Origin: Weissella confusa | GTDB lineage: Bacteria; Bacillota; Bacilli; Lactobacillales; Lactobacillaceae | NCBI GenBank assembly: GCA_041871065.1 | Contig: CP168942.1 | Location: 2,240,893 to 2,304,892, forward strand | Direction: 5' to 3' | Length of the DNA: 64,000 nt | Position numbers and translations under genes: made by a program | Notes under the pieces: model-generated | Databases searched by the model: none | What the model was told of the DNA's origin: nothing | The model's input: the letters and a program-made list of their open reading frames with translations, nothing else | Part shown: piece after piece, positions 51,069 to 63,010 of the stretch | Numbering within the stretch: the stretch's first letter is position 1 | Layout of the letters: each line of letters opens with the position of its first letter

Positions 51069-51160
51069 GGTTAAAGTTTAATTGTGAACTTTCTGTGAAT
51101 TTTCGCAATCGCTATTATTTCGGGGATTTATTTTATTTTTTTAGGAGAACGATATCAAGT

Positions 51161-53347
51161 ATGAGTAACTTATCACGTACTGCTTCATTGTTTTCGACAG
51201 CCGTCTTGGGTGGCATGCTGTTGACGACATCGATTAACAGCGTTGCAACCATTGCATACGCTGCTGAAACGACAGCAGTTACTAGCACATCTAACGAGAC
51301 AACCACCGACGCTATTATCACTGCCGAAGTGCCCATGGAAGCCAGTGACAATATGGATAAATTCTTTAACGCAACTGCCAAGTTAGCCGTTAAAGGGTCT
51401 ACAACTGACGTCACTATTTCTTTCAAAGATTCAGTAACTAGCATGTTGGCTATGATTCCAGAGCTCACGTTCGACGGCATCACGCTACCAGTTAACGGGC
51501 AACAAGCCATTACATTCACCATTCCCACTGATGATTTGAAACCAACATCAGGCTCAAGTGTGACATTAGCATCTTTCACTAGTGTGCCAATGAGTCCCCA
51601 CAAGGGATACAAGTCAAACCTCACATTTGATTTGTCATCGCTTCTGCCAAGTTCATCACTTAAGACCGGTTCTTATGATTTGCCGATTTCTGCCGATAAC
51701 AAAATGGATACATGGTTCGACAAGAGCTTCTCAACAAAGATTGGTTGGTTAACCTCTCAAGTAACTGTTAGCTACCAAGAATCAAAGCAAGCAATGCTTG
51801 GTATGATTCCGTCACTAACTTTTGACAACATTACCAAGTCGGTGAACGGCCAACGAATGATTACTTTCGATATTCCAACTAAGGATTTAAATCCTGATGC
51901 TAATGGTATTGCAAAAATTGCTTCATTTACATCCGTTCCAATGAGTCCTTCAAGGGGATATGCATCAACATTGTCATTTAACATGACCAGCGCAATGGGT
52001 GAATCCGGCGCAACTGATCCAGTTGCACCAGAAGTGCCAACGACACCAGAACAACCAGATAATCCTAGCGAATCTAATCCTGAAAAGCCGAGTCAAACAG
52101 CACTAAAGAATGGTGTTTACTCAGTACCATTAACCAACTACAAGACTGGCACAACGACTGCTTCAAGCATGAACAATTACCTGAAGACACCAGCGACAGT
52201 CACTGTTAAGAATGGTCAGGCAACTATCGATATCGAAACAAGTAACGCTTCTATCATGGGGATGATGTCTAACTATCGCTTTAACGGTATTAAAGCAACT
52301 GCATCTGGTAACCACTGGTTGGTGACGCTACCCGTTACCGACTTGAACAAGACAGTTGCAACGAGTATGACGATTTCAATGAATGGTACGGTCATTGAAC
52401 AGCCTCAAGCCGACATGGTATTTGATGTTGAAAAAGCAGTTCGCCTCGGCGACGTGCCAACAGATACAAAGCCAGTGACGCCATCAACTCCTGAAAAGCC
52501 AGCAGGTGATACGCCAGTTGCAACTCCTGATACATCAAACGATGTTGCGCAAGATGCAACCCACGCTTTGAGTATTTTACAAGGTGATAAGAACGAAAGC
52601 TCAATGGCCGCAACCTATATTCTGCCAACGATTAAGCTAAGTAAAAACGCTGATGGCACATACTACGCTTATCTAACAACGCACACCCCAGCGATGATGG
52701 GACAAAATCCAATTCGCTTTAACGATAGTAAGCACGCTGCTAAGTTAATGTGCACCAATCTGGTGAACGGTTACTACCAATCGGTTTTCCGTCTAACGCT
52801 AAGCGCATCAGAAATTGGGTCACCAATTTTGACTAACATTCACGTGCAATTCACATCACCAATCGTTTATAACGAAAACTATGAGATTCGTCTGGTTATC
52901 GGTGATCAATTATCTGGCGATACATCAGTTAACAACCAAAATAATGATCAAACTCAAAACGAAATTACAGATACAGTGATTGTTCCACGTGAAACAGAGG
53001 CAACGACAACGACTTTTGATCCTGCGCCAGCTGCATTCACTGCTGTAGCTTCATCGGTACCAATGGCAGCCACACCTTTGGCGACAACTCGTTTAGTTGC
53101 GTCACCTCAAACTGTCGTTACGCCACAAACAGCAACATCTGATAAGAAAATCAAGCTAGCACCCGCTCAAACGAAGCAGGTTGCCAACAACAAAGATGAA
53201 AAAACTGCTACCAAGGTCACAGAACCAAAAGCACCTAAGCAATCTAAAATTGCACGCGCAGCAATGATTGGCGCTGGTGTTGCGATTACTGCTGCAGTTG
53301 GATTTGTTGGTGCCTCTCTTGCACTTAACATTTTCAAACGTCAATAA
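51161..53347 (+). CDS. Multi-NEAT surface protein (heme acquisition), 728 residues
   Basis: Start ATG at 51161 after TTAGGAG with an unusually long 13-base gap; the frame from 51095 is rejected. Signal peptide (1-35), two NEAT-like domains without the heme motif (about 59-165, 167-283), a third (about 315-430), then a complete NEAT domain (about 467-585) with SMAATYIL and Y-N-E-N-Y, the SxxxxY and YxxxY heme features. A Pro/Thr linker and a C-terminal membrane helix (about 702-724) ending NIFKRQ follow. No LPXTG motif, so it is membrane-anchored. First gene of the heme locus; contains a perfect parS (52981). Confidence 0.85.
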   Translation: MSNLSRTASLFSTAVLGGMLLTTSINSVATIAYAAETTAVTSTSNETTTDAIITAEVPMEASDNMDKFFNATAKLAVKGSTTDVTISFKDSVTSMLAMIPELTFDGITLPVNGQQAITFTIPTDDLKPTSGSSVTLASFTSVPMSPHKGYKSNLTFDLSSLLPSSSLKTGSYDLPISADNKMDTWFDKSFSTKIGWLTSQVTVSYQESKQAMLGMIPSLTFDNITKSVNGQRMITFDIPTKDLNPDANGIAKIASFTSVPMSPSRGYASTLSFNMTSAMGESGATDPVAPEVPTTPEQPDNPSESNPEKPSQTALKNGVYSVPLTNYKTGTTTASSMNNYLKTPATVTVKNGQATIDIETSNASIMGMMSNYRFNGIKATASGNHWLVTLPVTDLNKTVATSMTISMNGTVIEQPQADMVFDVEKAVRLGDVPTDTKPVTPSTPEKPAGDTPVATPDTSNDVAQDATHALSILQGDKNESSMAATYILPTIKLSKNADGTYYAYLTTHTPAMMGQNPIRFNDSKHAAKLMCTNLVNGYYQSVFRLTLSASEIGSPILTNIHVQFTSPIVYNENYEIRLVIGDQLSGDTSVNNQNNDQTQNEITDTVIVPRETEATTTTFDPAPAAFTAVASSVPMAATPLATTRLVASPQTVVTPQTATSDKKIKLAPAQTKQVANNKDEKTATKVTEPKAPKQSKIARAAMIGAGVAITAAVGFVGASLALNIFKRQ
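52981..52996. other. parS site, perfect
   Basis: TGTTCCACGTGAAACA matches the Bacillus parS consensus; read as V-P-R-E-T within the NEAT gene. Confidence 0.87.
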
Positions 53348-53473
53348 CACTTAAAATCGCGACTACACAAGTTGAAACAGCAACTTACGACTGCTAATAA
53401 TTATTTGCTTTTCGTTGTATCTTAAAAAAATAACCTACCCATTAGAAAACACTCCTAAACCTTGGAGCCTTCC

Positions 53474-53503
53474 TTGTTTCTAGTAGAAATTTCTGCATAG
53501 AAT
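53474..53503 (+). promoter_or_regulatory. Promoter of second NEAT gene
   Basis: TTGTTT, 18-bp spacer and TAGAAT, with the same CTGCATAGAATG context and spacing as the first NEAT gene. Confidence 0.6.
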
Positions 53504-53591
53504 GACCTATGTTACGACATTCATCTTATTCGAATGCCCGTAACAAGCACACGTGGAAGTGTATTTTCAGGTTAGGAGATATGTATTTATC

Positions 53592-56500
53592 ATGCATCAT
53601 TTATCACGAACGGTAATGTTATTTTCAACAATTATTCTGGGCGGAATTGCGTTGACAACATCCTTTGATGGCAAAACCAACTCAGAAACTATCTTTGCAT
53701 CAGAAGTCTTGCAAAAAACTTCAACATCATCATCCGCTACTAATTTAAAACCGGGTGTTTATGACGTTACTGCATATAACTATAAGACAGGTGGCGCCTA
53801 CGAACCTGGTACGGTACCTACGCAAGGAAATAACGGTACTGAATCCAAATTCGCTAAATATTTTGATTCAAAACAGCAAGTCACAATTAACAACGATGGA
53901 ATGGCAACGATAACATTCCATTTGGATTCAAAAAAAATCGGCCTAAGTTCCTTATACCGTTATCAAGTTGGACCAAATTTAGTTCAAGCTACTTTCAATA
54001 AGAATAATAATACTTACACTGTTACGTTGCCCACTAGCCAATTGAATGGTGTCATCAAAACATTGATTCTTTTTTCAACCGCTGACGCAAACGGTTTTCA
54101 AGAGAGCCATTCAAAAGTAACGCCTGAATCATCTGACCTATACTTTGATTGGTCTTCAGCAACAAAAACTGCTAACGACACAAAAAATAACGGGGCGGTT
54201 ACTGATAATTCACACATATTGAAAGACGGTACATATGAAGTGCCACTTAAAACATATGCAATTGATGAAACACGTGAATCTGCCTTGAAACCTTATCTAA
54301 GTCCTTCAGCAACTGTCACAGTGAAGAACGGTCAAGCCACACTGGATATTGTTGAAGACTCAAAAGGATTGAATCAAGCATCTCTCGGCGATTTTAGTTT
54401 TAATGGGTACGCTGCAAAGCACGACAAAAACCATTGGACGGTAACGTTACCAGTTGCAATGCTAAATCATCACATAACGTCCCACGTTAACATTATGTTA
54501 GGTGGTTCATTTGTGTTTATGAGTCCAACTTTTGATCTCTCGCTTGATATTCAAAAGTACCTTGATGCTACTGAACATGCACCAAATACTAACGATGAAA
54601 AGAATAATTCTTCAACATCACCAGATAAAAAGCCCGATGCACCAACAACGCCTGTTAGTGAAGAGACACATGAGTTAAGCATTCTACAAGATCCAAAAAG
54701 TGAGAACAAAGGTAAGCCATCAGTAGCTGCACAATACCTGTTGCACACTATTAAATTGGTTAAAAATTCGGATGGTTCTTATTATGCCTATATAACGACT
54801 AATACCCCAAAAACTATGGGTAACGCACCAATTACATTTACGGACACGCAACATGAACCTAAGGTAGTTAGTACGACATTAGTCAATGATAACTATCAAT
54901 CAGTTATTCGTCTTAAGCTATCAGCTTCAGAAATTTCAGCGCCGATTTTAGCAAATATACATGTCAAATTTACGATTCAGGGAGTAATGACCTACGATCA
55001 CCCTTACGTTATTCAGCTTGTCATTGGTAAATCATCCGATGCTGATAGCTCTAAGAGTTCTTCAATGAGTAGTAGTAGTTCTTCTAGTTCTGAAAAGGCT
55101 AAAAGTTCGTCCGCTTCTTCTAAGAACAGTAGCTCTTCTAGTTCCGAAAAGGCTAAAAGCTCTTCCGAATCTTCTAAGATTAGTAGCTCTTCTAGTTCTG
55201 AAAAGGCCAAGAGCTCTTCCGAATCTTCTAAGATCAGTAGCTCTTCTAGTTCCGAAAAGGCTAAGAGCTCTTCCGAATCTTCTAAGATTAGTAGCTCTTC
55301 TAGTTCCGAAAAGGCTAAAAGCTCTTCCGAATCTTCTAAGACCAGCTCAAGTAGCGCCAAAAGTTCTTCTACAACGCCTGTAAAGAAACCTGATGCGCCA
55401 ACGAAACCCGTAAACGAAGAAACGCGGAGCCTAACCGTTCTACAAGCCGACAGTGATAAACCCTCAATGGCTGGGAAGTACATGATCAACACTGTTAAGT
55501 TAACGAAGAATTCAAATGGTTCTTACTATGCATACTTTACGACAAACACGCCAGCAAACATGGGAGAAACCCCCGTTACGTTTACTGACATGGCTCACCA
55601 TTCAGAAGTGATTAGTAATACATTGATTAATGGTTTTTATCAATCAGTTGTACGTCTCACGTTGTCACCTTCTGAAATTTCATCACCAATTTCAACAAAC
55701 ATACATGTTATCGTTCCTGGAATTAATTACAACAACCTTTATGTTATTCGACTAGTTATTGGTGATACCGCAATTTCTAACATTGATGATTCTAAGAATT
55801 CATCTAGCTCTGATAAGCCAAAGAAGCCTTCCGATTCAGATCAACCTAAGATTTCTAGTTCGGAGAGTTCTAAGAACTCTTCTCAATCTTCTAAGATTAG
55901 TAGTTCTTCTAGTTCCGAAAAGCCTAAGAGCTCTTCTCAATCTTCTAAGATTAGCAGCTCTTCTAGCTCCGAAAAGGCCAAGAACTCTTCCGAATCTTCT
56001 AAGATTAGCAACTCTTCTAGCTCCGAAAAGGCCAAGAACTCTTCCGAATCTTCTAAGATTAGCAACTCTTCTAGCTCCGAAAAGGCCAAGAACTCTTCTC
56101 AATCTTCTAAGACCAGCTCAAGTAGCGCCAAAAGTTCGTCTACAACGCCTGTAAAGAAACCCGATGGGCCAACGAAACCAGTCACTTCAGAAACACGTAA
56201 CCTACGCATTCTACAAGATAAGTCCGACAAGTCTTCAATGGCTGCTAAGTACATCCTAGATACTGTGAAGTTGGATGAGAATACTAATGGTTCTTACTAT
56301 GCATACGTGACAACACACACGCCAGCCATGATGGGGAAGCAGCCTATCACGTTCACAGACACACAACGTACCGCTAAATTCATGAGTACAAAGTTAATCA
56401 ATGGCTACTACCAATCTGTTATCCGCATCAAGTTGTCGGCATCAGAACTGGCAGCGCCTATTTTGACTCATATCCACGTCGAATTTAAGCAACCAATAGC

Positions 56501-57716
56501 TTACAACGATACGTACGGTATACGCCTAGTTATTGCTTCATCTGCAAACGACAGTTCAAAGAGTTCTTCCGAGTCTTCTAAGAGCAGCAGTTCTTCTAGT
56601 TCCGAAAAGCCTAAGAGCTCTTCTCAATCTTCTAAGACCAACAGCTCTTCTAGTTCTGAAAAGGCTAAGGGTTCTTCTCAATCTTCTAAGATTAGCAGTT
56701 CTTCTAGTTCTGAAAAGACCAATAGTTCGTCTGAGTCTTCTAATACCAGCAACTCTTCTAGCTCTGAAAATGCTAAGAGTTCTTCCGAGTCTTCTAAGAC
56801 TAATAGTTCATCTAGCTCCGAGAACACTAAGAGTTCTTCTACAACGCCTATTACGAAGCCTGACACACCAAAGACAGATATCACAGAGGAAATGCGTAGT
56901 TTAACTATTCTGCAATCCGATAATGACAAGCCTTCAATGGCCGCCACCTACATGTTGCCAACAATTAAGTTAGTCAAAAATGCAGATGGATCTTACTTTG
57001 CTTTCATTACAACGCATACGCCAGAAATGATGGGGCAATCGCCTATTACTTTCAATGATGCAGCACACGATGCCAAGGTTATCAGTACCGAATTGGACAG
57101 CGGTTTCTACCAATCAGTTGTCCGTCTAACATTGTCACCATCAGAATTATCAGCGCCAATTATCACTAATATTCACGTGGCGTTTACACAACCAATGCCT
57201 TACGACAACTACTACAGCATTCGCTTGGTTATTGGTGATAATACGGCCACAACTTCTACAACACAAACAAGTAATAGTGTGGCTGATAATACGCCAACGG
57301 TTGTAGCACCGGATACTGCCATTAGTACCACGGGTATGTCTAACAACACAATGGCATCCAGCGCATCTACAAGTAAAGCGCCCGTCGATACAAATTCCGT
57401 AACCACTGCGCCGGCGGTTGTAATGCCACAATCAGCTGTTAAGACGCCACAACACACAGTAGTGACCACAAACCAAGCTCAATCAGCAACTCAAAAGAGC
57501 ACATCCGAGAAAAAGCAACACAAAATTCACGTCGCACAAAAGCAACTGCCAGCCACCAATAGTTCTAGCCATCATTCAAACGTTAAGGTGACGGCGGAAC
57601 ATTCTAATATGAGTGCCGTTATGATTGCCATCGGCGCTTCAATTGCAACAGCTATTGGCTTTATCGGCACATCGCTCGCCTTAAATATTTGGAGAAAGCA
57701 CAATAATAATGATTAA
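53592..57716 (+). CDS. Giant six-NEAT heme-binding surface protein, 1374 residues
   Basis: ATG at 53592, 13 bases after TTAGGAG. The signal peptide resembles that of the upstream NEAT protein (LSRT...LFST), indicating duplication. Two N-terminal NEAT-like domains (about 52-200 and 210-328) lack YxxxY. Four heme-type NEAT domains follow (about 359-478, 611-726, 867-983, 1101-1217), each with S-[MV]-A-x-x-Y and a closing YxxxY (Y-D-H-P-Y, Y-N-N-L-Y, Y-N-D-T-Y, Y-D-N-Y-Y). Three Ser-rich linkers of 18-residue repeats separate them. C-terminal helix (about 1347-1367), no LPXTG; LPATN lies too far upstream. Likely captures heme and passes it to the Shp-like protein. Confidence 0.88.
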   Translation: MHHLSRTVMLFSTIILGGIALTTSFDGKTNSETIFASEVLQKTSTSSSATNLKPGVYDVTAYNYKTGGAYEPGTVPTQGNNGTESKFAKYFDSKQQVTINNDGMATITFHLDSKKIGLSSLYRYQVGPNLVQATFNKNNNTYTVTLPTSQLNGVIKTLILFSTADANGFQESHSKVTPESSDLYFDWSSATKTANDTKNNGAVTDNSHILKDGTYEVPLKTYAIDETRESALKPYLSPSATVTVKNGQATLDIVEDSKGLNQASLGDFSFNGYAAKHDKNHWTVTLPVAMLNHHITSHVNIMLGGSFVFMSPTFDLSLDIQKYLDATEHAPNTNDEKNNSSTSPDKKPDAPTTPVSEETHELSILQDPKSENKGKPSVAAQYLLHTIKLVKNSDGSYYAYITTNTPKTMGNAPITFTDTQHEPKVVSTTLVNDNYQSVIRLKLSASEISAPILANIHVKFTIQGVMTYDHPYVIQLVIGKSSDADSSKSSSMSSSSSSSSEKAKSSSASSKNSSSSSSEKAKSSSESSKISSSSSSEKAKSSSESSKISSSSSSEKAKSSSESSKISSSSSSEKAKSSSESSKTSSSSAKSSSTTPVKKPDAPTKPVNEETRSLTVLQADSDKPSMAGKYMINTVKLTKNSNGSYYAYFTTNTPANMGETPVTFTDMAHHSEVISNTLINGFYQSVVRLTLSPSEISSPISTNIHVIVPGINYNNLYVIRLVIGDTAISNIDDSKNSSSSDKPKKPSDSDQPKISSSESSKNSSQSSKISSSSSSEKPKSSSQSSKISSSSSSEKAKNSSESSKISNSSSSEKAKNSSESSKISNSSSSEKAKNSSQSSKTSSSSAKSSSTTPVKKPDGPTKPVTSETRNLRILQDKSDKSSMAAKYILDTVKLDENTNGSYYAYVTTHTPAMMGKQPITFTDTQRTAKFMSTKLINGYYQSVIRIKLSASELAAPILTHIHVEFKQPIAYNDTYGIRLVIASSANDSSKSSSESSKSSSSSSSEKPKSSSQSSKTNSSSSSEKAKGSSQSSKISSSSSSEKTNSSSESSNTSNSSSSENAKSSSESSKTNSSSSSENTKSSSTTPITKPDTPKTDITEEMRSLTILQSDNDKPSMAATYMLPTIKLVKNADGSYFAFITTHTPEMMGQSPITFNDAAHDAKVISTELDSGFYQSVVRLTLSPSELSAPIITNIHVAFTQPMPYDNYYSIRLVIGDNTATTSTTQTSNSVADNTPTVVAPDTAISTTGMSNNTMASSASTSKAPVDTNSVTTAPAVVMPQSAVKTPQHTVVTTNQAQSATQKSTSEKKQHKIHVAQKQLPATNSSSHHSNVKVTAEHSNMSAVMIAIGASIATAIGFIGTSLALNIWRKHNNND
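55042..55380 (+). repeat. 54-bp tandem repeat array 1 (Ser-rich linker)
   Basis: About five copies of an 18-codon unit encoding ISSSSSSEKAKSSSESSK, nearly identical at DNA level. Part of the giant NEAT gene. Confidence 0.9.
55786..56140 (+). repeat. 54-bp tandem repeat array 2 (Ser-rich linker)
   Basis: About four copies of the same unit, with Asn and Gln substitutions (EKAKNSSESSKISNSSSS). Confidence 0.9.
56550..56845 (+). repeat. 54-bp tandem repeat array 3 (Ser-rich linker)
   Basis: About five more diverged copies (EKPKSSSQSSKTNSSSSS, EKTNSSSESSNTSNSSSS). Confidence 0.88.
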
Positions 57717-58491
57717 AAAAATATTGATTACCGTCGCGCTTAGCTTAACGACAATTCTAACGCCAACATATTTTGGATCTGCAGATAGTTACACTGTACC
57801 GATGCAAGTTTTAGAGAACGGTACAAATAAAACGTCGTATGCGGCGGCCTATTTTGCTGGTTCGGCAACCGTTACACCCAGTGATGACGGTTATTCAATC
57901 ACATCAACGATTACAACTGATACAAGTTTAGGTAATTATCCGGTCCAGATGCTGAGCGTTGATGGTGGTGGTGTTTCAATCGCCAAGAGTCAAGCGGGAA
58001 ATAATCAAACAATCACTTATACTTTCCGCACAAACGACCTAAGCGCCCGTCACAATGCCAATATTCGCGTCGATGTTGATAATATCAACTATCACCACAA
58101 TTACACGGTTGGGTTAGTTGTTGATGGATCAACTGTTCCGGCGCCACAGCAAGCGACAGTTGCTTCGTCATCTGTTGCACAGCACAGTGCTACTACTTCA
58201 AGCGCTTCCAGCACATCAACCCAATCAAGTGTAACGAGTGAATCAGTTTCGACTGATAGTTCGGCGATTACATCAAACAATGCTTCATCAACAACTTCAA
58301 CAAGTAGCGAAGCCTCAACTTCAGCAAATGTTAGTGATAAGAAAAAAGTTCCTGCGACTAAGAAAGAGGTCACACCTCAAACGGACACAGCGACTAGTGA
58401 AACACCTTTGCCAATTGCAGCGATTATCGGTGGTGGATTAGTGATCGGCATTGCCGGGGCAGTTGCGCTAAATCTACTAAAGAAGAAGTAA
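57709..58491 (+). CDS. Shp-like single-NEAT membrane-anchored heme protein
   Basis: 260 residues: signal peptide (1-26), one NEAT domain (about 27-145) with TSYAAAYF and Y-H-H-N-Y, a Ser/Thr linker, and a C-terminal membrane helix (about 236-256) ending NLLKKK. Layout equals streptococcal Shp, which relays heme from Shr to HtsA. Overlaps the giant NEAT gene by 8 bases and is followed 3 bases later by the binding-protein gene, so translation is coupled. Confidence 0.88.
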   Translation: MIKKILITVALSLTTILTPTYFGSADSYTVPMQVLENGTNKTSYAAAYFAGSATVTPSDDGYSITSTITTDTSLGNYPVQMLSVDGGGVSIAKSQAGNNQTITYTFRTNDLSARHNANIRVDVDNINYHHNYTVGLVVDGSTVPAPQQATVASSSVAQHSATTSSASSTSTQSSVTSESVSTDSSAITSNNASSTTSTSSEASTSANVSDKKKVPATKKEVTPQTDTATSETPLPIAAIIGGGLVIGIAGAVALNLLKKK

Positions 58492-58494
58492 GCC

Positions 58495-59364
58495 ATGTCA
58501 AAAAAACAACTAACTGGATTAAGTATCCTATTCATTATTTTGGTAATACTAGCTGGCGGTTGGGTATGGTTAGTGACGCAAAAGGACGGACATACAGCGT
58601 CATCCCCAACAAAACGGATAATCGTCACTACAAATGCGCAAGCCCAAGTGTTTGATAAATTAACCATCCCCTTAGTTGGGGTGCCCACACCTGGTGAGCA
58701 ACAAACACTGCCAAAACGGTATGCCAAGTTGCCTGAAGTTGGTAATCACGTTGCACCTAATCTGGAAAAAATGTCGTCACTAAAACCTGATGTGGTCTAC
58801 CTAGATAGCGCATTAGTTGATGACTACCAACAAAAGTTAGCCAGCGATCATATCGCGACGCAGACATTGGATTTTTCAACACTTGATGCATTAAAAAGCA
58901 GCATTACCACGGTCGGCGAACAATACAATAAGCAAACTGAAGCAAAGCAACTAGTTAAACAATTGACCATTAAACCCGTTAAATTAGCATCCCGACCAAA
59001 AGTTGCACTACTCATGGGAATGCCGGGTGGTTCATTCTTGGTTGGCACCCAACACAGCTATGTCGGTGATTTAATTACTAAAGCGGGTGGGGATGTCATT
59101 GGGGCAGGTGACTCAGCGTATACGAACTTGAACGCTGAACAAATCGCATCCGAGAACCCTGATGTCATCATTACCATGGCGCATGCAATGCCCGACAATG
59201 TTTTCAAAAGTTTTGATGCTCTATTTGCCCAAAACAATTGGCAGGCTATTAATGCTGTGAAAAACGGGCACGTCTATCAAGCCAAAGAACCTATTTTTGG
59301 TATGACAGCCAATCTCAATGCGCCAAAAGCATTCGATCAACTCAAAACTTGGTTAGGAAATTAA
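58495..59364 (+). CDS. IsdE/HtsA-like heme-binding protein, without lipobox Cys
   Basis: 289 residues. N-terminal membrane helix (about 7-27) with no Cys (LAGGWVW), so an uncleaved anchor rather than a lipoprotein. The class III fold shows LPLVGVP-like IPLVGVPTPG, LPKRYAKLPEVGNHVAPNLEKMSSLKPD, MGMPGGSFLVG and the AHAMP motif that holds the heme His in IsdE. The axial Met of IsdE (GNPM) is Val here (GNHV), although a Met lies in LEKM. Delivers heme to the permease that follows. Confidence 0.88.
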   Translation: MSKKQLTGLSILFIILVILAGGWVWLVTQKDGHTASSPTKRIIVTTNAQAQVFDKLTIPLVGVPTPGEQQTLPKRYAKLPEVGNHVAPNLEKMSSLKPDVVYLDSALVDDYQQKLASDHIATQTLDFSTLDALKSSITTVGEQYNKQTEAKQLVKQLTIKPVKLASRPKVALLMGMPGGSFLVGTQHSYVGDLITKAGGDVIGAGDSAYTNLNAEQIASENPDVIITMAHAMPDNVFKSFDALFAQNNWQAINAVKNGHVYQAKEPIFGMTANLNAPKAFDQLKTWLGN

Positions 59365-59375
59365 AGGGGCTGCCT

Positions 59376-60299
59376 ATGAAACATCTTTATAATTGGGTGC
59401 TAGTTGGTTTGCTAATCATCAGCGTTGTCATCGCTTTGATGGTTGGTAGCACTGGCCTGCCAGTCTTTTCAAATAATGACGCATGGCACCTCATCCTGGC
59501 TTACCGACTGCCACGCATTATCGTGAGTATTATTGGTGGCGCCATTATCGGCACCAGTGGTTTGTTACTACAACTTGTCTTACGTAATCGATTTGTCGAT
59601 GCCTCGATTTTAGGCATGATGAACGGTAGTCAGTTTTTCACAACAGGTGCGTTGGTTTTAATCCCAAGCGTACTAGCCAATAATGTTATTGTCGGGGCAC
59701 TTACCGGCATCATTATCATGATCGGTTGGCGCCTCGTGATGCCGACTAATCGTGGTAATTTACAGCTCATTTTGATTGGCATTGCAACCGCGATGACATT
59801 TCAAGCGGGCACAAACATTGCCAGTGAAGGATTCGGCCTGCCATTACCTACACTCAGCACCGTCACTTGGTTGCAAGTTGTCCAACTAGCCATCAGTGGG
59901 TTAGTTGGCAGTATCTTATTACTCTTGGTTTGGCATCATTTAAAGTATTTCGCGTTGTCATCGCAGCAAGTTCGTCTGCTGGGAATCAACGAATCACGCA
60001 CAATGTGGTTTGTCATAATCGCCATTGGTATTTGGATTGGCGCTTTAACTAGCTTGATTGGCGTCGTCTTTTTCTTAGGGGCAATTCTGCCACAAATCGC
60101 TCGGTTAATGTCACCAAAAGCGAAATCACAACAGCTAATTGGTTCGACTGCTTTGTGGGGTAGCTTATTATTATTAAACGCTGATACCATCGCCCGAACG
60201 ATTTTAGCGCCGAAAGAATTGTCGACCAGCGCCGTCTTGCTCGCAATTAGTGGGCCATTATTCGTTCTAATGCTCATTCGAGGTGGTCGCCATGCTTAA
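59376..60299 (+). CDS. FecCD-type heme ABC permease (IsdF/HtsB-like)
   Basis: 307 residues from the ATG at 59376 (11 bases after the previous stop). About nine to ten helices; LPRIIVSIIGGAIIGTSGLLLQLVLRN (FecCD signature) and GAILPQIARLM near the C-terminus. Length and order after IsdE-like gene support heme import. Overlaps the ATPase gene by 8 bases. Confidence 0.9.
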   Translation: MKHLYNWVLVGLLIISVVIALMVGSTGLPVFSNNDAWHLILAYRLPRIIVSIIGGAIIGTSGLLLQLVLRNRFVDASILGMMNGSQFFTTGALVLIPSVLANNVIVGALTGIIIMIGWRLVMPTNRGNLQLILIGIATAMTFQAGTNIASEGFGLPLPTLSTVTWLQVVQLAISGLVGSILLLLVWHHLKYFALSSQQVRLLGINESRTMWFVIIAIGIWIGALTSLIGVVFFLGAILPQIARLMSPKAKSQQLIGSTALWGSLLLLNADTIARTILAPKELSTSAVLLAISGPLFVLMLIRGGRHA

Positions 60300-60975
60300 A
60301 TTTAATCAAGTTTCATTCAATCGCAATGATAAACGTATTCTGAATGATATTTCAGCATCACTTGAACCCAATCGCATTACGACATTGATTGGTCCAAATG
60401 GAGCTGGAAAAACAACCTTGTTGCAATTAATAACCGATGACCTAAAGCCATCGGCTGGATTTATCACGGAACGACCAAAGAAGATCGCGTTACTCGCACA
60501 AAAAAACGAGCTGTTTGAACCGCTGACAGTACGCGATCTTTTAACGATTAAACAACCGGATTTGGATGAGCGTATTATCAACGACTTACAACTCGAAGCG
60601 TTACTTGATCAAAATATGATGTCGCTATCTGGTGGCCAACAGCAACTCGCTTGGCTAGCCTTTGTCCTGCATCAAGCACCAGATTTACTGATTCTTGATG
60701 AGCCAACCACTTATTTGGATTTACAATACCAGCAAATCTTTCTAAAAACGTTGCAGCGTGTCCAAAAAGAACGCCAATTGACAGTGATTATGGTTCTGCA
60801 TGACTTAAATCAAGCCTTTGCTTACAGTGATGCCATTTGGTTGCTTAACAAATCGGGCGAATTGTTAACAGCTGATAAGCAAACTTTGCTAGATGAGGCC
60901 AAACTTTCTGTGGCGTTCCAAACGCCACTCAAAATTGTGTCTGTGGATGACCAAACGTTAATCTTACCGATATAA
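60292..60975 (+). CDS. Heme ABC transporter ATPase (FepC/HtsC-like)
   Basis: 227 residues from the ATG at 60292, after GAGGTGG. Walker A GPNGAGKTTLLQL, signature LSGGQQQLAWLA, Walker B LLILDEPTTYLD and H-loop VLHDLNQAF. Last gene of the heme operon, followed by a terminator. Confidence 0.93.
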   Translation: MLKFNQVSFNRNDKRILNDISASLEPNRITTLIGPNGAGKTTLLQLITDDLKPSAGFITERPKKIALLAQKNELFEPLTVRDLLTIKQPDLDERIINDLQLEALLDQNMMSLSGGQQQLAWLAFVLHQAPDLLILDEPTTYLDLQYQQIFLKTLQRVQKERQLTVIMVLHDLNQAFAYSDAIWLLNKSGELLTADKQTLLDEAKLSVAFQTPLKIVSVDDQTLILPI

Positions 60976-61009
60976 AAAAATGCGACTAGCACTTAGCTAG
61001 TCGCATTTT
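60974..61009. terminator. Bidirectional terminator, heme operon / lepB
   Basis: Stem AAAATGCGACTAGC / GCTAGTCGCATTTT with A/T-runs between convergent genes. Confidence 0.88.
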
Positions 61010-61012
61010 TCA

Positions 61013-61791: not shown

Positions 61792-62625
61792 TTAACGCTT
61801 GTGACTGCGCTTTGCCTTACGGATTGCACGTTCACGATCCTTTTCGGCACGCTTCTTAGCTTCACGCTCACGACGAATTTCAAATGGGTTTTGAATCGTC
61901 CATGTTTGTGCAACTTGGAAGGCATTTGAAACCACCCAGTACAATGACAAGGCTGATGGCACATTAATGGCAAAAATGAAGATCATGATTGGCATAATGT
62001 ACGTCATTGACGTTGTCATGCTGTTCTTTTCAGGTTGTCCCATCATCACAAGGTATGATGAAGCAAACGTGAATAGGGCAGCCAAAATTGGCAAAATGAA
62101 CAAGTGGTCGTGTTGACCAAGTTGGGCCCACAAGAAAGTTCCCGTTTCCAATTGATTCGTCGTACGAATAGCCGTATACAAAGCAATCAAAATTGGCATT
62201 TGAACAATCAAAGGCAAGAAGCTAGCAAATGGATTTACACCAGCTTCCTTATATAGGGCGCTTTGCTCAGCTTGCATTGCAGCCATTGACTCAGTATCAC
62301 GATTTGGATACTTGGCTTGGATAGCCTTCAAGGCAGGGGCAACTTCTTGCATCTTACGCATTGATTGTGTTTGATAAACCATCAAAGGCAAAATCAAAAG
62401 ACGAATCAAAATCGTAAAGGCGATAATTCCCAAACCATAGTTATTACCGAACCAAGCTGACACACCCAAAATTGAGCGTGAGAAGTTGGCGATGATAACA
62501 CCATGCCAGAAACCAGTTCCTGAAACCGAACCCTTAAACATCACACCGGCAATAATCATGATGACTAAAGCGATAGCTGCGGTAACTGTAGAACGCGTTG
62601 AAAATACTTTCTTAGCAGACTGCAT
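61792..62625 (-). CDS. yidC: Membrane insertase YidC/OxaA, without lipobox Cys
   Basis: 277 residues from the ATG at 62625 (TGGAGA upstream). Five helices with the conserved groove Arg in FTILIRLLILPLM, PILIALYTAIR, and a basic Arg/Lys-rich tail that binds ribosomes. Firmicute YidC proteins usually begin with a lipobox Cys; here the segment reads IMIIAGVMFKG without Cys. Gene order with rnpA-rpmH is standard. Confidence 0.95.
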   Translation of the reverse strand: MQSAKKVFSTRSTVTAAIALVIMIIAGVMFKGSVSGTGFWHGVIIANFSRSILGVSAWFGNNYGLGIIAFTILIRLLILPLMVYQTQSMRKMQEVAPALKAIQAKYPNRDTESMAAMQAEQSALYKEAGVNPFASFLPLIVQMPILIALYTAIRTTNQLETGTFLWAQLGQHDHLFILPILAALFTFASSYLVMMGQPEKNSMTTSMTYIMPIMIFIFAINVPSALSLYWVVSNAFQVAQTWTIQNPFEIRREREAKKRAEKDRERAIRKAKRSHKR

Positions 62626-62653
62626 CGATTTTCTCCATATAATATGTGGTTTT

Positions 62654-63010
62654 TTATTTTTCGTCCTGATCGACAAACAAATTTGCCAACTTGAAGACGT
62701 GTTCCAAATTCTTCTTGATGATCGCCATGTCTTGGTCATGAGCTGATGGACGGGCAATCACTAGGATATCGACATCTTGGCGCAAGTTTGGCTTAAATTC
62801 CAAAACGCTTTGACGAATACGACGCTTAACCCATACACGCTCATGACCACGCAACCCAACCTTCTTAGAAATAGAAATTCCCAAGCGGAAGTGGGTTGGT
62901 TGTTCACGCTCCATCGTGTAAACAATAAACATTTTGTTTGCGACCGAGCGATGTTGATCGAAGACTAATTGGAAATCAGCTTCCTTTTTAACACGGTAAC
63001 TCTTACGCAT
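62654..63010 (-). CDS. rnpA: Ribonuclease P protein component
   Basis: 118 residues from the ATG at 63010. The start RKSYRVKKEADFQLVF and the RNR-type motif VWVKRRIRQSVLEF are diagnostic, here with KRRIR. Assists the RNase P RNA in tRNA 5' maturation. Lies between rpmH and yidC as usual. Confidence 0.96.
   Translation of the reverse strand: MRKSYRVKKEADFQLVFDQHRSVANKMFIVYTMEREQPTHFRLGISISKKVGLRGHERVWVKRRIRQSVLEFKPNLRQDVDILVIARPSAHDQDMAIIKKNLEHVFKLANLFVDQDEK

What the first reader, a model, noticed from the sequence alone, without database searches (positions are those of the whole stretch)
51161..60975. Heme-acquisition locus combining multi-NEAT proteins with Shp/HtsABC-like relay, anchored without sortase motifs
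Six genes in order: NEAT(x4), NEAT(x6), Shp-like NEAT, IsdE/HtsA-like, permease, ATPase. Six domains keep both the S-x-x-x-Y helix and YxxxY heme motif; five N-terminal domains lack YxxxY and may bind hemoproteins. All three surface proteins end in a plain membrane helix instead of LPXTG, unlike Isd systems and like Shr/Shp. Such a full system in a lactic acid bacterium that needs exogenous heme for respiration is notable and fits a newly acquired or lineage-specific system.
Basis: partly seen in the sequence, partly recalled or inferred. Interest (0 to 1): 0.78.

Follow-up and report, generated by a model that had tools for sequence, protein, structure and literature searches.

The report
Lipoprotein-free heme-capture system in Weissella
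A food-associated bacterium carries a six-gene system that probably takes heme from its surroundings and hands it inward for respiration; it is built from known NEAT and transporter parts, but its outer parts are held by protein helices, apparently because this bacterial lineage has lost the usual way of attaching proteins with a lipid.

Summary
The six genes are real: two multi-NEAT proteins, a single-NEAT protein, an IsdE/HupD-like binding protein, a FecCD permease and an ATPase. All eleven domains are NEAT or NEAT-like; the first two rest mainly on structure prediction. The window is from the Weissella confusa clade. 'Newly acquired' is not supported: in 14 of 17 NEAT-bearing Weissella relatives the locus lies near the same trkA gene. 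Of 27 Weissella genomes, 18 of 21 with cydA have NEAT, against 0 of 6 without, so the likely role is supplying intact heme to cytochrome bd. (1) The binding protein has no lipobox. Full-length Lgt was found in 0 of 27 Weissella genomes, LspA in 2 of 27; 0 of 20 sampled Weissella amino-acid binding proteins have a lipobox, against 16 of 16 from Lgt-bearing genera. The lineage seems to have lost lipoproteins. (2) IsdE's axial Met78 is replaced; a His one residue earlier is conserved (GNH[VI], 40 of 40 nearest), suggesting His/His heme ligation, untested. Corrections: the helix motif is S-x4-Y, and the second protein has an LPATN, though too far from its helix for a normal sortase signal. New variant of a known kind.

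The parts
51161..53347 (+). neatA: surface protein, 728 aa, four NEAT or NEAT-like domains, C-terminal membrane helix
51329..51649 (+). domain A1, divergent NEAT-like, no YxxxY
51674..52000 (+). domain A2, divergent NEAT-like, no YxxxY
52103..52444 (+). domain A3, NEAT without YxxxY
52556..52912 (+). domain A4, NEAT with S-x4-Y and YxxxY
53249..53341 (+). C-terminal membrane helix of neatA, no LPXTG
53592..57716 (+). neatB: surface protein, 1374 aa, six NEAT domains with Ser-rich linkers, C-terminal membrane helix
53745..54167 (+). domain B1, NEAT without YxxxY
54219..54566 (+). domain B2, NEAT without YxxxY
54663..55037 (+). domain B3, NEAT with YxxxY
55419..55772 (+). domain B4, NEAT with YxxxY
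56190..56546 (+). domain B5, NEAT with YxxxY
56889..57245 (+). domain B6, NEAT with YxxxY
57546..57560 (+). LPATN in neatB, 17 mostly polar residues before the helix: not a canonical sortase signal
58495..59364 (+). IsdE/HupD-like binding protein, 289 aa, N-terminal hydrophobic helix without a lipobox
58747..58752 (+). His85-Val86: Val aligns with the Met taken as axial Met78 of IsdE; the His before it is conserved
59182..59184 (+). His230, aligns with the His taken as axial His229 of IsdE
59376..60299 (+). FecCD-type permease
60292..60975 (+). ABC ATPase
60976..61010 (+). 15-pair stem with T tail: likely terminator of the transcript
51076..51089 (+). GTTTAATTGTGAAC, candidate operator downstream of the presumed -10, conserved in relatives

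Best explanation
A surface-to-cytoplasm heme relay. The two long NEAT proteins reach into the cell wall: their YxxxY domains bind heme, and their N-terminal domains without YxxxY probably dock on hemoproteins or other heme carriers. The small NEAT protein at the membrane passes heme to the IsdE-like protein, which delivers it to the FecCD permease and ATPase. The heme is used intact, mainly by cytochrome bd. Because the Weissella lineage appears to lack lipoprotein processing, the binding protein is held by an N-terminal helix; the NEAT proteins are held by C-terminal helices, so every outer part is anchored by a protein helix. Shown here: domains, gene order, missing lipobox, conservation, co-occurrence with cydA, no Lgt found. 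Inferred: heme binding, direction of transfer, use of heme, membrane topology.
For: Families; NEAT fold of A1-A4. Conserved gene set near trkA in 14 of 17 NEAT-bearing Weissella relatives. NEAT against cydA in 27 Weissella genomes: 18 with both, 0 NEAT only, 3 cydA only, 6 neither; Fisher p 0.0003, not corrected for kinship. cydABCD in this genome (cydA by Pfam, the others read by eye). No Fur-family match, no catalase match, and the ABM protein nearest to B. subtilis YhgC/HmoB matches it only weakly (E 0.0086-0.013): these fit use of intact heme. Lgt full length 0 of 27, LspA 2 of 27, lipobox 0 of 20 Weissella against 16 of 16 Lgt-bearing.
Against: No binding or growth data. Three Weissella genomes have cydA without NEAT (G006, G007, G009), so NEAT is not required for cytochrome bd. 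G003, counted as having both, is a scrambled assembly. An ABM protein of 179 aa and one of 110 aa exist and could still degrade heme. G028 has Lgt yet its IsdE-like protein also lacks a lipobox, so the link between Lgt loss and anchor change is not strict. Both Lgt searches missed the B. subtilis control genome.
Confidence: 0.8

Rival explanations
1. The locus takes up heme mainly as an iron source, as Isd does, with a heme-degrading ABM enzyme releasing iron in the cytoplasm.
For: Two ABM-family matches in the genome; one weakly resembles B. subtilis YhgC/HmoB (E 0.0086-0.013).
Against: No Fur-family match in the genome. The ABM genes are not in the locus, and ABM matches also occur in genomes without NEAT (G001, G007, G025). 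NEAT was not seen without cydA in the 27 Weissella genomes.
Confidence: 0.15
2. The locus handles another porphyrin, for example coproporphyrin or coproheme, that the ferrochelatase could process.
For: A ferrochelatase gene is present and the reading frames around it show no other heme-synthesis gene by eye; the IsdE-like protein has a changed axial position.
Against: Ferrochelatase was found in only 6 of 27 Weissella genomes while NEAT was found in 18 of 27 (the two sets differ by one genome); the NEAT heme motifs are standard.
Confidence: 0.08
3. The long NEAT proteins are mainly adhesins and heme binding is secondary.
For: Long Ser-rich linkers and five domains without heme motif; faster divergence of the surface proteins (dN/dS 0.14-0.33 against 0.06-0.08 for the importer genes, pairs window-L032 and window-L041).
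Against: Conserved gene set with a heme-type importer and co-occurrence with cydA.
Confidence: 0.1

Closest known systems
Listeria Hbp2/Hbp1/HupDGC
   Same: Multi-NEAT protein, small NEAT protein, HupD-like binding protein, permease, ATPase (gene set recalled). HupD (Lmo2184, 5joq) is the top solved match to the binding protein (E 2.9e-51), and Hbp2-N2 (4myp) the top sequence match to neatA (E 8.9e-6; named Hbp2).
   Different: Listeria uses sortase B anchoring and a lipoprotein HupD (recalled); here helices only, and the axial Met is replaced. An order-level relative (G052) with a similar set keeps NPKT/NPKS-type C-termini and a lipobox-like N-end.
Streptococcus pyogenes Shr/Shp/HtsABC
   Same: C-terminal membrane helices instead of LPXTG; long receptor, small membrane NEAT protein, binding protein, permease, ATPase (recalled).
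   Different: C1 has a Tyr-pair heme motif, not two Met (Shp ligands recalled); in neatA and neatB the Pfam scan shows only NEAT over its cut-off.
Staphylococcus aureus Isd
   Same: NEAT domains; IsdE-like protein (2q8p, E 3.7e-51).
   Different: No sortase signal next to the helices, no Fur-family match in the genome, no IsdG gene in the locus, the IsdE Met not kept.
Lactobacillales NEAT cluster of PMC4143258 (passages read)
   Same: That survey already reports 50 Lactobacillales NEAT domains, including L. coryniformis.
   Different: Its main text has no occurrence of Weissella or Leuconostoc; its supplementary tables were not available here.

Membership tests
NEAT domain proteins (PF05031) | Match to PF05031 over its cut-off | tested here: met
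   All three proteins over 32.8 bits
NEAT domain proteins (PF05031) | NEAT fold in A1 and A2 | tested here: met
Heme-binding NEAT | Ser in the 3-10 helix and YxxxY in strand 8 (features recalled) | tested here: met
   6 of 11 domains
Heme-binding NEAT | Heme bound in vitro | not testable with these tools
   none
IsdE equivalog (TIGR03659) | Score over the curated cut-off | tested here: not met
   259.9 against 298.65 bits: IsdE-like, not filed as IsdE
IsdE equivalog (TIGR03659) | Axial Met78 and His229 (recalled) | tested here: not met
   His kept (His230); Met position is Val86 with His85 before it
Gram-positive lipoprotein | Lipobox cysteine after the hydrophobic stretch | tested here: not met
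   LAGGW in the window protein
Isd system | Sortase-signal anchoring of NEAT proteins | tested here: not met
   No motif next to the helix; LPATN 17 residues before it in neatB
Isd system | Fur regulation | tested here: not met
   No FUR-family match in the genome; the control rang in 13 of 14 genomes
Shp | Bis-Met heme ligation (recalled) | tested here: not met
   C1 has YHHNY and S-x4-Y

The most novel reading that the evidence does not exclude
The Weissella lineage, and probably most of the former Leuconostocaceae, has discarded bacterial lipoprotein biogenesis. Its importers were rebuilt with helix-anchored or secreted binding proteins, and the heme relay is a clear case: every outer component is held by a protein helix, and its IsdE-like protein switched from Met/His to His/His heme ligation.
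Probability: 0.4. Interest if true: 0.75.

Novelty: new variant of a known kind. Interest (0 to 1): 0.58.

Why it matters
Lgt and LspA are usual in Firmicutes (recalled; here both in 30 of 33 non-Weissella genomes of the order). A fermented-food genus that does without them would be a natural test of what lipid anchoring is for, and of how a cell without lipoproteins looks to Toll-like receptor 2. The heme relay would show how a pathway whose known versions use a lipid-anchored binding protein can run on protein helices, and offers an unusual heme site to study. It also gives a concrete candidate for how lactic acid bacteria obtain heme for respiration.

Tried and rejected
Newly acquired island: not supported; same chromosomal neighbours in 14 of 17 relatives. 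Diversifying selection on the surface proteins: dN/dS is under 1 in every comparison that gave a value; surface proteins diverge faster than trkA and the amino-acid permease gene, but dS is raised too (0.38-0.92 in the locus against 0.16-0.45 in those two genes, L041 and L032), so old or recombined alleles are as likely. The neatB rows against L032 and L039 compare non-orthologous genes and were not used; neatA against L041 covers only 336 residues. IsdG-type enzyme in the locus: none; the ABM proteins elsewhere are weak candidates. Shared operator with cyd: the 14-base site is not found in the cyd region above chance, and with up to two mismatches it is not clearly enriched in the window (6 against a mean of 3.6; 13 of 100 shuffles reach 6). 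Catalase as the main heme client: present in 13 of 17 NEAT-bearing against 2 of 9 NEAT-less Weissella genomes, p 0.013 (G060 and G026 left out, as each was in only one of the two searches), but not found in this genome.

Prior reports of lipoprotein loss: listings seen were 3 of 3 papers, 2 of 2, 0, 15 of 142, 10 of 568, 10 of 14; none of the titles or abstract openings states it. Passages of PMC5020093 list Weissella and Leuconostoc among genera with homologues of two staphylococcal lipoproteins, which is homology and says nothing of a lipobox; passages of PMC5817068 and PMC7530257 say nothing on the point. PMC3017865 (passages read) tabulates very few lipid-anchored proteins in L. citreum (0.06%), L. 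mesenteroides (0.1%) and O. oeni (0.12%) against 1.1-1.5% in the L. lactis, S. thermophilus and P. pentosaceus rows seen; it has no occurrence of Lgt. Weissella heme use: 25 of 50 papers listed and 12 of 50, none titled for heme uptake by Weissella; PMC2696406 (passages read) lists W. cibaria and W. halotolerans among strains used, result not seen.
Full report
What is there. Six genes on the plus strand, 51161-60975. Pfam: NEAT in the first three, Peripla_BP_2, FecCD and ABC_tran in the rest. neatB overlaps the small NEAT gene by 8 bases, which is 3 bases from the binding-protein gene; the permease gene follows after 11 bases and overlaps the ATPase gene, so these five are probably one transcript ending at the 15-pair terminator-like stem at 60976-61010. 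neatA is separated from neatB by 244 bases and may have its own promoter. The named records found are Weissella confusa and W. cibaria (5 loci, best 98%); the public protein database already names such products 'NEAT domain-containing protein [Weissella ...]'.

Anchors. The three NEAT proteins end in a hydrophobic stretch and a short basic tail. The genome has four sortase matches, so missing signals are not for lack of the enzyme. neatB holds LPATN (LPTTN in L041) 56 residues before its end, with 17 mostly polar residues before the helix, unlike a normal sorting signal. One Weissella relative, G018, has a NEAT protein with LPTTA close before its helix (L036), and an order-level relative, G052, has NPKT/NPKS-type C-termini. 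So sortase use varies around this group.

The binding protein. Nearest solved relatives are Listeria HupD (2.9e-51) and IsdE (3.7e-51). In the IsdE alignment, by my count, chain residues Met49 and His200 become 78 and 229 with one common offset of 29, which fits the axial ligands as I recall them; they fall on Val86 and His230. His85 lies just before Val86. In 61 aligned sequences, the window and the 39 nearest (P0069-P0107) all read GNHV or GNHI; P0108 and P0109 (the latter named Paenibacillus IsdE) read GNPM; the other 19 are more distant and mostly read otherwise. By locus, the intact Weissella copies read GNH[VI], G018 reads GDHV, and G028 and G052 keep Met. The lipobox is absent: LAGG-W in the window. 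A pattern flagged three of the 39 (P0092, P0102, P0107); in the first two, and in other copies with a Cys near residue 12, the Cys lies before or inside the hydrophobic stretch; P0107 could be a real lipobox; four entries look cut or mis-started at the N-end (P0090, P0094, P0100, P0104).

Why no lipobox. TIGR00544 (Lgt) and PF01252 (LspA) were searched in 60 genomes (this one and 59 relatives). Weissella: full-length Lgt 0 of 27, three with fragments (G012, G019, G024); LspA 2 of 27 (G012, G024). In G024 the LspA gene lies beside a transposase, a MerR-type regulator and a cadmium-resistance-like gene, which I read by eye as a mobile element. Other genera of the family: 7 of 10 have both; G027, G032 and G033 have neither. 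Order: 23 of 23 have both. G032 is probably Convivina: its small NEAT protein is 100% identical over 93% of its length to one from C. praedatoris. As a second test I fetched 40 regions with SBP_bac_3 proteins, picked from the best-scoring rows and not at random: 41 ORFs, one of them without its N-end and set aside. Lipobox: 0 of 20 Weissella, 0 of 4 from G027 and G032, 16 of 16 from Lgt-bearing genera (L071, whose start is uncertain, was rechecked). YidC in this window and in the intact relatives examined likewise shows no cysteine around the hydrophobic stretch (IIAGVMF here; that YidC is often a lipoprotein is recalled). Some Weissella binding proteins have what look like ordinary cleavable signal peptides (L070), others an uncleaved helix (L069). 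Against: both Lgt searches missed the B. subtilis control, and G028 has Lgt but an IsdE-like protein without lipobox.

Role. Among 27 Weissella genomes NEAT occurs in 18, all with cydA; 3 have cydA only, 6 have neither; G003, counted in both, is a scrambled and 66% complete assembly. The cydABCD genes lie together here. No catalase and no Fur-family protein were found here. Ferrochelatase is present, its neighbours showing no other heme gene by eye; the rest of the pathway and menaquinone synthesis were not searched. This favours use of intact heme by cytochrome bd over iron extraction.

History. trkA and the amino-acid permease gene lie on one side of the locus in 14 of 17 NEAT-bearing Weissella relatives, and lepB and yidC on the other in 11; in the 16-18 kb fetched for G018, G020 and G026 none of them was found. 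trkA and the permease are 98.7-100% identical between this genome and G013 or G023, while neatA is 67-82%, the small NEAT protein 68-79% and the binding protein 90-91% identical. Gene content varies: G013 and G021 have one long NEAT protein, this genome two.

Regulation. Upstream of neatA a near-palindrome GTTYAATTRTGAAC follows the presumed -10 and is exact in 8 of the 11 upstream regions compared (this window and 7 relatives; 11 was a chosen part of the loci held); L041 and L032 differ by one base, L039 by more. It is a candidate operator, no more.

Literature. PMC4143258 (passages) reports Lactobacillales NEAT domains; PMC10745875 (passages) reports NEAT proteins in Periweissella motility loci and is the only library paper found with both 'Weissella' and 'NEAT domain'. 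PMC3017865 (passages) tabulates near-zero lipid-anchored proteins in Leuconostoc and Oenococcus, which supports the lipoprotein-loss reading and means part of it is already in print as numbers.

Noticed in passing
whole genome; Weissella relatives G001-G026, also G027, G032, G033: No full-length Lgt found in 27 of 27 Weissella genomes and LspA in only 2 of 27; sampled amino-acid binding proteins have no lipobox.
   Followed up: partly
L027 and L047 (W. confusa FS54, JACSZT010000002.1; G003): Public contig reads as about 200-base pieces in reversed order with each piece's strand kept; cydA, catalase and the NEAT locus show it. Probably an assembly artefact; left as is.
   Followed up: partly
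L024 (JQAY01000002.1) and L025 (JAAOED010000001.1): Two records both labelled W. confusa DSM 20196 carry different NEAT loci, so one label may be wrong.
   Followed up: no
L041:7340-9238 (G023): neatA is split into two ORFs by an in-frame stop in this relative.
   Followed up: no
window 61792-62757, minus strand: YidC N-terminus has IIAGVMF with no cysteine where a lipobox might be expected.
   Followed up: partly
G000:C1:1094799-1095713 (L062): Ferrochelatase gene next to an NRAMP-like transporter gene, no other heme-synthesis gene seen nearby by eye; found in 6 of 27 Weissella genomes.
   Followed up: no
G000:C1:1490878-1491066 (L060): 179-aa ABM protein, weak relative of B. subtilis YhgC/HmoB, a candidate heme-degrading enzyme.
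   Followed up: partly
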